A stretch of 64,000 nt of DNA, taken from NCBI RefSeq assembly GCF_021117385.1, contig NZ_CP088252.1, forward strand, positions 682,001-746,000, read 5' to 3'. Shown piece by piece: positions 4,677 through 9,570 of the stretch. Both the position numbers and the translations under genes were made by a program. The notes under the pieces are model-generated. The model was not told the DNA's origin and made no database searches. It saw only the letters and a program-made list of their open reading frames with translations. The stretch comes from Frateuria soli (GTDB lineage Bacteria > Pseudomonadota > Gammaproteobacteria > Xanthomonadales > Rhodanobacteraceae). Position 1 is the stretch's first letter; each line of letters starts with the position of its first letter.

Positions 4677-6425
4677 ATGAGGACTAGTGTGCTGAGCGTG
4701 AAGGGCAAGTTCAAGCAACTGCGGCATTTTGCAGGCATCACCAGCTGTGCGCTGGGCCTGGCCGCGTGCGCCGGCCTGCCCGCGGGCAAGGCACCCGTGC
4801 CTGCCCCGAAGCAGCCGCTGGACCGGCTCACCGTGGTGACGCCGGACGAGCAGCACGACCTGCTGGCGCAACTGCTGGCCGGCGAAATGGCGCTGACCCG
4901 TAACGACCTCAAGGGTGCCTCGGCCCGCTACATGCAGGCGATGGCGCTGTCGAACGACCCCGCGGTGGCCCAGCGGGCCGCGGAGCTGGCCCTGGCGATC
5001 CGCGACACGGCCGCCGCGGCGCACGCGATCGACCGTTGGCAGGCGCTCGGCGCCAGCCCGGCGGACCTGGCCCAGGCACGCGCCGAACTGACGCTGTCCA
5101 CCGGCGACACCGCGGGTGCGCGCGAGCAGCTGGAGCGCCTGGTCGGTAGCGGCGACCCGCATGCCTGGCGCCGCTTCGGCCGTGCTCTGATCGGCGCCCG
5201 TGACCCGGCGCAGGCCGCCCAGTTGCTGGAAGCCCTGGCCACGCCCGAGCGGCTGCCGGCCGACCCGCAGGCCTGGCTGGCGATGAGCGAGCTGGGCGAG
5301 AAGCTGGATCGGCCCAGGTATGCCATGCAGATCGCCGACGCTGCGGTGGCGCGCTTCCACGACACCGAAACCTACGCCTGGGCGGCGCAGATGAAGTTCA
5401 AGTCCGGCGACAAGAATGCCGCCAGCGCGCTGCTCAGGCAGGCGCTGGCGCGTTCGCCGGACAACGTTCGCCTGCGCCTGACCTACGCCAGCCTGCTCAG
5501 CCAGGGCGGCGACTACCAGGCCGCCGCGAAGCTGCTGGACAACGGCCCGCAGAGCGCCGAAACCTATGCCCTGCGCGCCGGACTGGCGGCGCAGGCGCAC
5601 GACAGGAAAGCCATCGCCAGGCTCTACCGTGAGCTCAGGCAGGCCCCGGCCAGTGTGCGCGAAAGCAGCGCGTTCCTGCTCGGCCAGCTGGCCGAGATGC
5701 AGGACCGCAACGCCGAGGCGCTGGAGTGGTACGACCAGGTCGGCGACGACGACCCGCACGCTTTCGACGCCGACCTGCGCAGTGCGGTGATCCTGCACAC
5801 CCAGGGCAAGGTGGACGACGCCCATGCGCTGCTGGAGCAGCTGGAAACCGCCTACCTCGACCAGCCCGAGGAGCTGCGCCGCGCCTGGCAGGCCGACGCC
5901 GAGCTGTACATGCGCGAGGAGCACTACGCGCAAGCCGCCAGGGCCTACGACCATGCGCTGCAGGTGCTGCCGGACGACCCCGGCCTGCTCTACGGTCGCG
6001 GCCTGGCCTATGCCGAGGCGGGCGATATCGACCGCGCGGTGGCGGACTTCCGCCACCTGCTCAAGCTCAAGCCGGACGACATCGATGCCAGCAACGCGCT
6101 GGGCTACACGCTCGCCGACGCTGGCCGCGACCTGCCCGAGGCAACCAGACTGATCGAAGCCGCCCGCGCGGCCAAGCCGCACGATCCGGCGATCGCAGAC
6201 TCCTGGGGCTGGCTGCAGTACCGCCTGGGCCACCTCGACGAGGCTGCACGCACCCTGCGCCAGGCCTGGAGCGCCGCGAAGGACGCCGACGTTGGCGTAC
6301 ACCTGGGCGAGGTGCTGTGGAAGCTCGGCAAGCGCCAGGACGCCCGGCTGGTGTTCGACCAGGTCCGCAAGATCGACCCGCGCAACGCCAACCTGCGCGA
6401 CACCCTGCGGCGCCTCGAGCCATGA
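4677..6425 (+). CDS. TPR-repeat lipoprotein
   Basis: The product is 582 residues. The N-terminus has a basic stretch, a short hydrophobic core and a lipobox LAAC with the lipidated Cys31, so export and acylation are expected. The remainder is a run of helical TPR-type repeats (for example DPGLLYGRGLAYAEAGD and DASNALGYTLADAGRDL), ending in a helix-turn-helix pair rich in Asp/Arg. It resembles the tetratricopeptide proteins encoded beside lolB in Pseudomonas and xanthomonads. Its stop overlaps the lolB start by 4 bp (ATGA), suggesting a joint role at the outer membrane. An internal GTG at 4689 is a possible alternative start that would leave the signal sequence intact. The specific function is unknown. 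Confidence 0.85.
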   Translation: MRTSVLSVKGKFKQLRHFAGITSCALGLAACAGLPAGKAPVPAPKQPLDRLTVVTPDEQHDLLAQLLAGEMALTRNDLKGASARYMQAMALSNDPAVAQRAAELALAIRDTAAAAHAIDRWQALGASPADLAQARAELTLSTGDTAGAREQLERLVGSGDPHAWRRFGRALIGARDPAQAAQLLEALATPERLPADPQAWLAMSELGEKLDRPRYAMQIADAAVARFHDTETYAWAAQMKFKSGDKNAASALLRQALARSPDNVRLRLTYASLLSQGGDYQAAAKLLDNGPQSAETYALRAGLAAQAHDRKAIARLYRELRQAPASVRESSAFLLGQLAEMQDRNAEALEWYDQVGDDDPHAFDADLRSAVILHTQGKVDDAHALLEQLETAYLDQPEELRRAWQADAELYMREEHYAQAARAYDHALQVLPDDPGLLYGRGLAYAEAGDIDRAVADFRHLLKLKPDDIDASNALGYTLADAGRDLPEATRLIEAARAAKPHDPAIADSWGWLQYRLGHLDEAARTLRQAWSAAKDADVGVHLGEVLWKLGKRQDARLVFDQVRKIDPRNANLRDTLRRLEP

Positions 6426-7051
6426 GGCGCCTCCTTTTCCTGGGGGCGGCAGCCAGCCTGCTGCTGGCCGCCTGTGCGCCCGTGCCGGTGCGCAGGCCGG
6501 CCGACGAGGCCGCGCTTGCCGCGCAGGCCGCGCGCGAGCGTCAACTCTCGGGCGCGGACCAGTGGATGCTGGAAGGCCACCTGGCCGTGTCCGACGGCCA
6601 CGATGGCGGCAGCGGCAGCCTGCGCTGGACGCAGGACGGCGAGCGCTACGACTTCGAACTGCGCGCGCCGATCACCGGCAAGAGCTTCCGCCTGAGCGGC
6701 GGCCCGGACGGAGCCCTGCTCGAAGGCATCGAGGGCGGACCGCTTCGCGGCTCCGACGCCGAGACGCTGATGCGCAAGGCGTTGGGCTGGGAAGTGCCGC
6801 TGGATGATCTGCGCGCCTGGGTTCTCGGCCTGCGCGCGACCGGCGCCCCCGCGCAACTGCGTTTCGGCGAACACGACCTGCCGTCGTTGATCGTGCAGGA
6901 CGGCTGGACGGTGGATTACCGTGCGTGGGACCAGGCGCAGCAGCCGCCGTTGCCGCAGAAGGTGTTCGCCAGTCGCCCCCCCTACAAGGTCAAGCTGTCG
7001 ATCGACAGCTTCCGGCTCGGCCCGGCGCCTTGCGCCGATTGCGGGCGCTGA
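6422..7051 (+). CDS. lolB: Outer-membrane lipoprotein insertion factor LolB
   Basis: LolB takes lipoproteins from the periplasmic carrier LolA and inserts them into the inner leaflet of the outer membrane. The product is 209 residues, close to the usual size. The signal ends in LLLAACAP, so Cys18 is the lipidated residue. Recognisable blocks are GSGSLRWTQDGERYDFELRA (the start of the half-barrel), PITGKSFRLSG, LGWEVPLDDLRAWVLG and DGWTVDYRAWD. It overlaps the upstream TPR lipoprotein gene and is followed within 4 bp by the GNAT-IspE gene, so it is clearly part of one operon. The lolB-ispE order is widely conserved in gammaproteobacteria. Confidence 0.93.
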   Translation: MRRLLFLGAAASLLLAACAPVPVRRPADEAALAAQAARERQLSGADQWMLEGHLAVSDGHDGGSGSLRWTQDGERYDFELRAPITGKSFRLSGGPDGALLEGIEGGPLRGSDAETLMRKALGWEVPLDDLRAWVLGLRATGAPAQLRFGEHDLPSLIVQDGWTVDYRAWDQAQQPPLPQKVFASRPPYKVKLSIDSFRLGPAPCADCGR

Positions 7052-7055
7052 CGCC

Positions 7056-8462
7056 ATGGCAGTGACGATCGCGCGTGCCATGGCCGCGCAGGTGCCCGCG
7101 TTGTGCGCGATCGAGCGCGCCGCGCTGGAACTGTTCCGCGCCCACCGTGCGTGGCAGGCCTACGCGGGCATGGCGATTCCGCCCGAGTTGCTCGATGCGG
7201 CGGTTGCGCGCGGCCTGGTCTGGGTAGCGCTCGAAGCGGGCGCGCCGGTCGGTTTCGTGTGGCTGCAGGACGGAATGGCCGGGGACGCCATCGAAATCGC
7301 CGAGATCGACGTGCTGCCGTCGCACGGTCGCCGCGGGATCGGCGCCGCACTGCTCGAACACGCCTGTGCCTGGGCGCGCGAGGCGGGTTACGGTCGCGTC
7401 GACCTGGGTACGCTGGCGGATGTGCCGTGGAATGCGCCGTTCTACGCCAGGCACGGCTTCGTCACGGTGGACGAGGCGGACCCGGCGTTCGCCCGCGCCC
7501 GCGAGCGCGACCGCGAAAACGGGTTTCCCGATTCCCTGCGCGTGTTCATGTCGCGCGCGCTTGCCGCGCCCGCTCGCGACGAATGGACCGCCTGGCCCGC
7601 CCCGGCCAAGCTCAACCTGTTCCTGCGCATCGTCGGCCGCCGTGCGGACGGCTATCACGACCTGCAGACCGTATTCCGCCTGCTCGACTGGGGCGATGAG
7701 CTGCGCGTGCGCGTGCGACCCGACGCCGCCATCGTGCGCGTGAACGACGTTCGCGGCGTTCCGGCCGAGGCCGACCTGGTGGTACGCGCCGCGCGCTTGC
7801 TGCAGGCGGAAACCGGCGTGGCGACGGGGGCCGAGATCGCCGTGGACAAGCGCATCCCGATGGGGGGCGGCCTCGGCGGCGGCAGCTCCGACGCTGCCAC
7901 CACGCTGGTTGCGCTCAACCACCTGTGGGCCTGCGGCCTGGATGAGGACGCGCTGGCCGACCTGGCGCACCGGCTGGGCGCCGACGTGCCGGTGTTCGTG
8001 CGTGGCCGCTCGGCCTGGGCCGAGGGCGTGGGCGAGCGGCTTACCCCCGTCGCGCTGCCACGGCGCTGGTACGTGGTGCTTGACCCGGGCGAACACGTGC
8101 CCACCGCGGCCTTGTTTCAAGCGTCTGAATTGACACGAAATGCACCGCCGGCGACAATTTCGTCCTTTGCTTCCGGCGAAACGGCGGAAAACGCGTTCGA
8201 GCCGGTCGTGCGCGCGCGACACCCGAAGGTGGCCGCGGCGCTGGACTGGCTCTCGCATTTCGGCCGCGCCCGGCTTTCCGGCAGCGGCGGGTGCGTTTTC
8301 CTGGAAGCCGCCTCGCTCGCGCAGGCGCGCCGGGTGGTGCGTGAGTGTCCTCCGGCATTCGCGGCACAACTTGCCGCGGGGCTGGAGGTTTCGCCCCTGC
8401 ATCGGGTCCTCGCGCGCCATCGCGCGAGGATCGTGGCGCCGGGGCAGCCGTTACGGGCTTGA
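7056..8462 (+). CDS. ispE: GNAT acetyltransferase fused to 4-diphosphocytidyl-2-C-methyl-D-erythritol kinase (IspE)
   Basis: One uninterrupted frame of 468 residues. Residues 1-160 are a GNAT domain: acetyl-CoA loop [10 protein letters not shown] near 91-100, then YARHGF, and a C-terminal end RVFMSRAL of the kind where stand-alone GNATs stop. Residues from about 177 are a complete IspE of the GHMP kinase family: PAKLNLFL with Lys185, [16 protein letters not shown] (268-283) for ATP, catalytic Asp310 in GADVPVF, and SGSGGCVF near the end. IspE phosphorylates CDP-methylerythritol in the MEP route to isoprenoids. No stop separates the parts; an in-frame ATG at 7548 (residue 165), without a good Shine-Dalgarno, could yield a free IspE. 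The position after lolB and before tRNA-Gln/prs is the usual ispE place, so the GNAT part is the addition. Confidence 0.9.
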
Positions 8463-8507
8463 AAATGCACGACAGGCGGTCAGGACGACGGTCTGCCAAC
8501 GAAACAC

Positions 8508-8584
8508 TGGGGCGTCGCCAAGCTGGTTAAGGCACGGGATTTTGATTCCCGCATGCGCAGGTTCGAATCCTGCCGCCCCAGCCA
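8508..8584 (+). tRNA. tRNA-Gln(TTG)
   Basis: A cloverleaf can be drawn: acceptor TGGGGCG pairs with CGCCCCA, anticodon stem CGGGA/TCCCG, anticodon TTG at 8542-8544, T arm with GTTCGAATC. The discriminator base is G and CCA is encoded (8582-8584). It sits between ispE and prs, as in Pseudomonas and other gammaproteobacteria. Confidence 0.97.
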
Positions 8585-8613
8585 TTCACGAATGGCTCTT
8601 TGAGGAATCCCAC

Positions 8614-9570
8614 GTGGACACGTCCACCCCGATGCTCTTCACCGGCAATGCCCACCGCGCCCTGGCCGAGGACGTCGCGCAGCGACTCGGCGTGCCCTTG
8701 GGCAAGGCGCTGGTCGGCAAGTTCAGCGACGGCGAAGTGCAGATCGAGATCGAGGAGAACGTCCGCAAGCAGGAAGTGTTCGTGCTGCAGCCGACCGGCG
8801 CGCCGAGCGCGGAGAACCTGATCGAGATGCTCGCCCTGGTCGATGCGCTCAAGCGCGCCTCGGCCGACAGCGTCACCGCGGTGATGCCGTACTTCGGCTA
8901 CGCCCGCCAGGATCGCCGCCCGCGCTCGGCGCGCGTGCCGATCACCGCCAAGATGGTGGCCACCCTGATCGGTACTGCCGGCGTCGACCGCGTGCTCACG
9001 GTCGACCTGCACGCCGACCAGATCCAGGGCTTCTTCGACATCCCGGTCGACAACGTCTACGCCTCGCCGATCCTGCTGGCGGACATCTGGCGCAACCACT
9101 CGATGGACGACCTGATCGTGGTCAGCCCCGACGTCGGCGGCGTGGTGCGCGCCCGCGCGATCGCCAAGCGGCTGGACGATGCGGACCTGGCGATCATCGA
9201 CAAGCGCCGTCCGAAGGCCAACGTCGCCACGGTGATGAACATCATCGGCGAGGTCGACGGCAAGACGTGCGTGCTGGTCGACGACATCGTCGACACCGCC
9301 GGTACCCTGTGCGCCGCGGCCGCGGCCCTGAAGGAGCGCGGCGCGCGCAAGGTCGTCGCCTACTGCGTGCACCCGGTGCTCTCGGGCGCGGCGATCGGCA
9401 ACATCGAGAACTCCCAGCTCGACCAGCTGGTGGTCACCAACACGCTGCCGCTGCGCCCCGAGGCGCAGAGTTGCGGCAAGATCCGCCAGCTCTCGGTCGC
9501 CGAGCTGCTGGCCGAGACCATTCGCCGCATCGCTTTCGGCGAGTCGGTGAGTTCGCTTTACGTGGATTGA
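8614..9570 (+). CDS. prs: Ribose-phosphate pyrophosphokinase
   Basis: The enzyme makes PRPP from ribose-5-phosphate and ATP for purine, pyrimidine, NAD, histidine and tryptophan synthesis. The product is 318 residues from a GTG start at 8614, chosen because GAGGA lies 7 bases upstream; the next ATG (8632) would remove conserved N-terminal residues. The signature [11 protein letters not shown] and the PRPP-binding loop [13 protein letters not shown] are both present, as is [16 protein letters not shown] near the N-terminus. It lies 29 bp after tRNA-Gln and is followed by a paired-arm repeat and rplY. Confidence 0.97.

What the first reader, a model, noticed from the sequence alone, without database searches (positions are those of the whole stretch)
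7056..8462. In-frame fusion of a GNAT acetyltransferase and IspE
A complete GNAT domain and a complete IspE share one frame with only about 15 residues between them. IspE is an essential MEP-pathway kinase and is normally a separate gene. A fused acetyltransferase could regulate it or simply tie expression together. An internal ATG at 7548 raises the possibility of two products from one gene.
Basis: partly seen in the sequence, partly recalled or inferred. Interest (0 to 1): 0.6.

Follow-up and report, generated by a model that had tools for sequence, protein, structure and literature searches.

The report
Clade-wide acetyltransferase–IspE fusion gene
A family of soil bacteria really does make an acetyltransferase and an isoprenoid-pathway kinase as one protein; in relatives that switched to another isoprenoid pathway the kinase half died or was deleted while the acetyltransferase, and a promoter hidden inside the kinase gene, survived, so the acetyltransferase has a job of its own.

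Summary
Window 7056-8462 (+) is one frame of 468 aa: complete GNAT, ~9-residue linker, complete IspE with an intact active site. The genome is closed and holds no other ispE. The fusion is no error: 102 sampled Rhodanobacteraceae genomes (17 genera) carry it without an intervening stop, and fused species form one clade (bootstrap 100). ATG 7548 is the conserved 'RVxM' methionine of GNATs, with no synonymous constraint around it and no ribosome-binding site before it. A dedicated IspE regulator is unlikely: in a Dyella clade that has the mevalonate pathway and lacks ispD/F/G, IspE is catalytically wrecked (six genomes, plus one independent Rhodanobacter case) or deleted/broken (six), yet GNAT stays under strong purifying selection (omega 0.06). 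In five genomes the only recognisable remnant of ispE is ~50 bases holding a sigma-70-like promoter (window 8130-8158, TTGACA-N17-GACAAT), the most synonymously constrained stretch of the gene, upstream of tRNA-Gln and prs. Best reading: two independent enzymes on one chain, with a promoter embedded in the kinase gene. The GNAT substrate is unknown and nothing was tested at the bench.

The parts
7056..8462 (+). Fused GNAT-IspE gene, 468 aa, stop 8460-8462
7056..7562 (+). GNAT acetyltransferase domain (residues 1-169); acetyl-CoA motif RRGIGA at about 7329-7346
   Evidence: Pfam; invariant residues; predicted fold
7548..7550 (+). Internal ATG = Met165 of the last GNAT strand; not supported as a start
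7563..7589 (+). Linker, about 9 residues (170-178)
   Evidence: junction alignment of ~95 fusions
7590..8411 (+). IspE kinase domain (residues 179-452); AKLN Lys185, GGGLGGGSS 270-278, Asp310
8130..8158 (+). Embedded promoter-like element TTGACA-N17-GACAAT inside the ispE half, upstream of tRNA-Gln and prs
   Evidence: synonymous constraint; unique in window; scan; retained in ispE deletions
8508..8584 (+). tRNA-Gln (TTG), first gene downstream of the embedded promoter
8614..9570 (+). prs (ribose-phosphate pyrophosphokinase), next gene downstream; named by gene order and similarity
6422..7051 (+). Upstream gene, lolB by gene order; stop 4 bases before the fusion start

Best explanation
A gene fusion at the base of one Rhodanobacteraceae clade joined a PA2271-like GNAT acetyltransferase to the front of ispE, between lolB and tRNA-Gln-prs. 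The product is one ~50 kDa chain holding two enzymes that work separately: IspE does the CDP-ME kinase step of the MEP pathway, and GNAT acetylates an unknown substrate outside that pathway. IspE lost its own start, so its synthesis is tied to that of GNAT. The ispE coding sequence also carries a promoter (8130-8158) for tRNA-Gln and probably prs. When a Dyella clade gained the mevalonate pathway the kinase was no longer needed and decayed or was cut out, while GNAT and the promoter were kept. Shown from sequence: the fusion, its conservation, the loss of MEP genes, the decay or loss of IspE, selection on GNAT, and the conserved promoter-like sequence. Inferred: catalytic activity of either half, independence of the two activities, transcription from the promoter, and that the mevalonate gain caused the decay.
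For: Fusion without stop in 102 sampled genomes of 17 genera; fused versus unfused split has bootstrap 100. All 16 genomes of the MVA-Dyella clade have HMG-CoA reductase, three inspected have the full operon, and all 16 lack ispF, ispG and a true ispD. In six of them plus one Rhodanobacter genome (G437) the Gly-rich loop of IspE is destroyed, and the Asp is also lost in four of these seven; in five the locus runs lolB-GNAT-tRNA-Gln-prs with ispE gone, and in a sixth only an out-of-frame remnant is left. GNAT-only genes keep 45-46 of 46 invariant GNAT residues with omega 0.062, against 0.03-0.13 in controls. The IspE N-half relaxes to 0.26 against 0.05-0.08. Promoter: strongest synonymous constraint in the ORF, only consensus site found in the region, retained in all five deletions with its distance to the tRNA cut from ~305-349 to 58-81 nt.
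Against: No biochemistry, proteomics or transcript data. GNAT activity is inferred from motif and fold only. That GNAT survives without IspE shows it has some other use in Dyella; it does not prove that it never acts on IspE where both exist. The fusion has been kept in 17 genera without a known split into two working genes, which could hint at some benefit of the physical link. In the MVA clade the dead IspE half stays open (0 stops against ~69 expected under neutrality), which simple decay does not explain.
Confidence: 0.75

Rival explanations
1. The GNAT domain is a dedicated regulator that acetylates or allosterically controls IspE.
For: Fusion kept in 17 genera with a short linker of nearly constant length; confident whole-chain model, pTM 0.86.
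Against: GNAT survives with all motifs and omega 0.06 after IspE was deleted or killed and the MEP pathway lost. Nearest relatives are standalone GNATs.
Confidence: 0.1
2. One gene, two products: a full fusion and a ~31 kDa IspE started at ATG 7548.
For: An in-frame ATG is conserved at this place in every complete fusion; IspE starting there would have a normal-length N-terminus compared with unfused relatives.
Against: The Met is conserved in standalone GNATs and GNAT-only genes too; no synonymous constraint (ratio 0.67-0.95, gene mean 0.79); no Shine-Dalgarno-like sequence before it.
Confidence: 0.1
3. In mevalonate-using Dyella the open but dead IspE half is held not for a protein role but because breaking it harms the downstream tRNA-Gln/prs region (embedded promoter, polarity).
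For: Promoter retained in every deletion; unfused DXR also decays with its frame still open; the 3' third shows extra synonymous conservation.
Against: omega 0.26 in the catalytic half is well below 1 and active-site residues are lost faster than other invariant residues, which suggests some fold-level selection.
Confidence: 0.45
4. Sequencing or assembly artefact (missed stop or frameshift).
For: None.
Against: Same frame in about a hundred independent genomes.
Confidence: 0.005

Closest known systems
IspE / YchB, CDP-ME kinase (TIGR00154; E. coli 1oj4)
   Same: Complete GHMP kinase domain above the curated cut-off, intact Lys, Gly-rich loop and Asp motifs; 49% identity to 1oj4 on the structural match; same position between lolB and prs
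   Different: No start of its own; carried as the C-terminal part of a GNAT fusion
PA2271 GNAT acetyltransferase of Pseudomonas aeruginosa (PDB 9cr5)
   Same: GNAT fold, TM-score 0.88-0.90 on the target, ~32% identity, shared [14 protein letters not shown] block
   Different: PA2271 is a standalone 174-aa protein; the substrate of the fused GNAT is unknown
IspDF bifunctional enzyme (recognised MEP-pathway fusion; PMC13001223, PMC10663253)
   Same: A MEP enzyme fused to another enzyme on one chain
   Different: IspDF joins two MEP enzymes; here the partner is an acetyltransferase with no known role in the pathway, and no report of this fusion was found in the library searched
Promoter for prs inside ychB/ispE of E. 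coli (recalled from older hemA-prs literature; not found in the library)
   Same: Promoter inside ispE serving downstream prs
   Different: Here tRNA-Gln lies first downstream; the element was not compared with the E. coli one
Partial MEP pathways beside a mevalonate pathway (Listeria, Enterococcus; PMC13001223)
   Same: MEP genes left over in an organism using mevalonate
   Different: In this Dyella clade ispD, ispF and ispG are absent, so MEcDP cannot be made; the leftovers are orphan DXR and IspE, mostly with decaying active sites

Membership tests
IspE (CDP-ME kinase) | Match to TIGR00154 above curated cut-off | tested here: met
   264 bits vs 138.7
IspE (CDP-ME kinase) | GHMP Gly-rich ATP loop, catalytic Asp, N-terminal Lys (AKLN) | tested here: met
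   PAPAKLN at 181, GGGLGGGSS at 270, LGADVPVF at 307 in the window protein
IspE (CDP-ME kinase) | Rest of the MEP pathway present in the host | tested here: met
   DXR, IspD, IspF and IspG found in G000; no HMG-CoA reductase; Dxs and IspH not searched
IspE (CDP-ME kinase) | CDP-ME kinase activity | not testable with these tools
   needs purified protein
GNAT acetyltransferase | Pfam GNAT model and acetyl-CoA motif R/QxxGxG/A | tested here: met
   PF00583 55.4 bits vs 20.7; RRGIGA with G94 and G96 invariant
GNAT acetyltransferase | GNAT fold | tested here: met
   Predicted model (GNAT blocks pLDDT 78-97) matches 9cr5 at about 2 A; predicted, not solved
GNAT acetyltransferase | Acetyl transfer to a substrate | not testable with these tools
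   substrate unknown
sigma-70 promoter | -35 and -10 hexamers with 16-18 nt spacing | tested here: met
   TTGACA-17-GACAAT, 10 of 12
sigma-70 promoter | DNA-level conservation beyond the protein code | tested here: met
   TTG 84/84 and ATT 84/84 where gene-wide usage is 13% and 20%
sigma-70 promoter | Mapped transcription start | not testable with these tools
   needs 5'-end mapping

The most novel reading that the evidence does not exclude
In the mevalonate-using Dyella the fused IspE half has become a pseudo-kinase scaffold for the acetyltransferase: catalysis lost, fold and frame selected, so a MEP-pathway enzyme was repurposed as a structural domain after its pathway vanished.
Probability: 0.22. 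Interest if true: 0.65.

Novelty: new variant of a known kind. Interest (0 to 1): 0.55.

Why it matters
IspE is an antibacterial target treated as a stand-alone enzyme of about 31 kDa; in a whole bacterial clade it is half of a bifunctional protein. The family also offers a natural experiment: one clade changed isoprenoid pathways, and the locus shows which elements selection kept (acetyltransferase, embedded promoter) and which it let go (kinase). That separates the functions of a fused gene without a knock-out, and warns that deleting ispE may also remove the promoter of tRNA-Gln and prs.

Tried and rejected
Frameshift or assembly error: rejected by relatives. Second start at 7548: not supported on conservation, synonymous-site and Shine-Dalgarno grounds. 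Dedicated IspE regulator: disfavoured by the GNAT-only genomes. GNAT-only as the ancestral state: rejected, since those genomes are nested inside the fused clade. Origin of the GNAT: not resolved; nearest standalone homologues are only ~34-47% identical and scattered. Literature searches for the fusion, PA2271, Dyella mevalonate use and an ispE-internal promoter found nothing on point; the library holds only open-licence papers. A codon-model run failed on a thread setting and was repeated. Limits: omega values come from small per-group trees with one omega each, not a formal branch test; the neutral-stop estimate assumes kappa 2 and one omega on the fitted tree; inter-domain packing in the model was not assessed beyond pTM.

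Full report
OBSERVATION. Window 7056-8462 on the + strand is a single open frame of 468 codons. Residues 51-135 match GNAT models and residues 179-452 match the ispE model TIGR00154 well above its cut-off. The upstream gene, lolB by gene order, stops at 7051, so the fusion begins 4 bases later; tRNA-Gln (8508-8584) and prs follow. The genome is one contig, 99.91% complete, and has no other ispE. Close relatives are Frateuria. The finding is correct as an observation.

DISTRIBUTION. A search with the GNAT half over 197 Rhodanobacteraceae genomes gave 111 with a hit. Three are remote homologues elsewhere in the genome, six are GNAT without a working IspE, and 102 are fused with an open frame across both domains, in 17 genera. 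The other genera of the family, and the Xanthomonadaceae loci examined, have a plain ispE whose likely start lies shortly before WPAPAK. On a tree of three neighbouring proteins (TPR, prs, rplY) the fused species form one group with bootstrap 100. One fusion event at the base of this clade is the simplest reading. Nearly all junctions align without gaps: LRVFMSR-x-L, about 9 residues, W[15 protein letters not shown].

THE INTERNAL ATG. Met165 (7548-7550) is present in every complete fusion, but it is equally present in GNAT-only genes and in standalone GNATs of other bacteria (RVAM, RVVM, TVFM), so it belongs to the last GNAT strand. Synonymous variation in windows around it is 0.67-0.95 of expectation; the gene mean is 0.79. 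No Shine-Dalgarno-like sequence precedes it. A second product cannot be excluded from sequence but has no support.

A NATURAL EXPERIMENT. In one well-supported clade (g6, bootstrap 100), all 16 genomes carry HMG-CoA reductase. The clade includes D. mobilis, D. acidiphila, D. dinghuensis, D. psychrodurans, D. flava and D. lipolytica, identified by matching contig lengths. In three inspected genomes the reductase sits in a complete mevalonate operon (HMGR fused to mevalonate kinase, phosphomevalonate kinase, diphosphomevalonate decarboxylase, IPP isomerase; names from sequence motifs) beside hopanoid genes. All 16 lack ispF and ispG, and the ispD model finds only weak nucleotidyltransferase matches or none. 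DXR is not found in nine and is diverged with altered active-site motifs in six of the other seven. The MEP pathway is thus gone. At the fusion locus there are three states. (a) IspE still open but with a destroyed Gly-rich loop, and in four cases no Asp: six genomes of this clade plus G437, a Rhodanobacter metagenome genome that made the same pathway switch independently. (b) IspE partly eroded or still intact: four genomes. (c) IspE deleted: five genomes, where a GNAT of 173-179 aa ends within a few residues of the SRxL end of the domain, and one (G064) with GNAT plus an out-of-frame remnant. One full-length copy (L151) lies inside the group of deleted ones (support 94), so deletion probably occurred more than once.

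SELECTION. GNAT in the six IspE-less genomes has omega 0.062; in genomes with decaying IspE 0.08-0.09; in controls 0.03 and 0.13. Each IspE-less copy keeps 45 or 46 of 46 invariant GNAT residues. The N-terminal, catalytic part of IspE has omega 0.26 in the dead set against 0.05 and 0.08 in controls, while the C-terminal part (0.12) is not relaxed. GNAT therefore has a use that does not need IspE. That is the main argument against a dedicated IspE regulator. It does not prove that GNAT never touches IspE where both work.

THE EMBEDDED PROMOTER. The strongest synonymous constraint in the whole ORF is at codons 355-375 (window 8118-8180). In 84 fusions with intact IspE, GAA is used 84/84, TTG 84/84 and ACA 83/84, then further on ACA ATT 84/84, although TTG and ATT are minor codons. 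This spells TTGACA-N17-GACAAT at 8130-8158, the only promoter-like match in 6400-8700 (0.1 expected by shuffling) and the only match of its strict pattern in the window. The same element stands in ispE of unfused Rhodanobacteraceae and, as TTGACG or TTGACC with 17 bases to GACAAT or GAAAAT, in Xanthomonadaceae, each upstream of tRNA-Gln. In the five genomes where ispE is deleted, the recognisable remnant is about 50 bases around this element, now 58-81 instead of ~305-349 bases from tRNA-Gln. In the predicted structure the residues it encodes (361-376) are the longest low-confidence internal segment. Promoter function is inferred; no transcript data were available.

WHAT REMAINS ODD. The dead IspE copies stay open: about 69 stops would be expected over the tree if the half were neutral, and none is seen. 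Active-site residues are lost more often than other invariant residues, and the D. flava protein is still predicted to fold as GNAT plus IspE. A structural role for the dead half would explain this, but unfused DXR shows a similar open decay in five genomes, so avoidance of polar effects on downstream genes is an alternative. This is the basis of the novel case.

MECHANISM AND KNOWN RELATIVES. The best-supported picture is two independent enzymes on one chain, IspE for the MEP pathway and a PA2271-like GNAT for an unknown acceptor, with a promoter for the next transcription unit buried in the kinase gene. The parts are known kinds. The combination was not found in the literature library, which holds only open-licence papers; automatic annotation of the architecture in databases is likely and was not checked.

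Noticed in passing
L198, L199, L200 (about 5.6-15.5 kb of each locus): Complete mevalonate operon with HMG-CoA reductase fused to mevalonate kinase (766 aa), plus PMK, MVD and IDI, among hopanoid genes (HpnH, HpnI, HpnJ) in Dyella genomes; gene names from motifs.
   Followed up: partly
L188-L193: DXR of mevalonate-using Dyella is still open in five genomes but its active-site motifs (LLLANKES, VDSEHNAIFQ) are altered; in G465 it is split between two frames. The C-terminal part stays conserved, as in dead IspE.
   Followed up: partly
G437 (L156, L080), Rhodanobacter FW106_bin.11: Independent switch to the mevalonate pathway: HMGR present; DXR, ispF and ispG not found; ispD diverged; IspE active site destroyed; GNAT intact.
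   Followed up: partly
G178 (L115, L079), D. lipolytica: Keeps DXR and a nearly intact IspE although ispD, ispF and ispG are absent; why is unclear.
   Followed up: no
L008, L059, L062, L066, L067, L070: GNAT half belongs to a divergent subtype (57-62% identity to the window) while the IspE half is typical (75-89%); in L008, same genus as the window, GNAT is 58% and IspE 89%, which suggests exchange of the GNAT half by recombination.
   Followed up: no
G343, G354 (genus g23), G398 (genus g12): Further Rhodanobacteraceae without ispE or DXR hits but with HMG-CoA reductase; probably other pathway switches.
   Followed up: no
window 8184-8411 (IspE residues 377-452) and relatives: Four-fold site identity downstream of the promoter is higher than in the rest of ispE in genus g4 and in the dead set (0.85 vs 0.58; 0.65 vs 0.45), possible extra DNA-level constraint.
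   Followed up: partly
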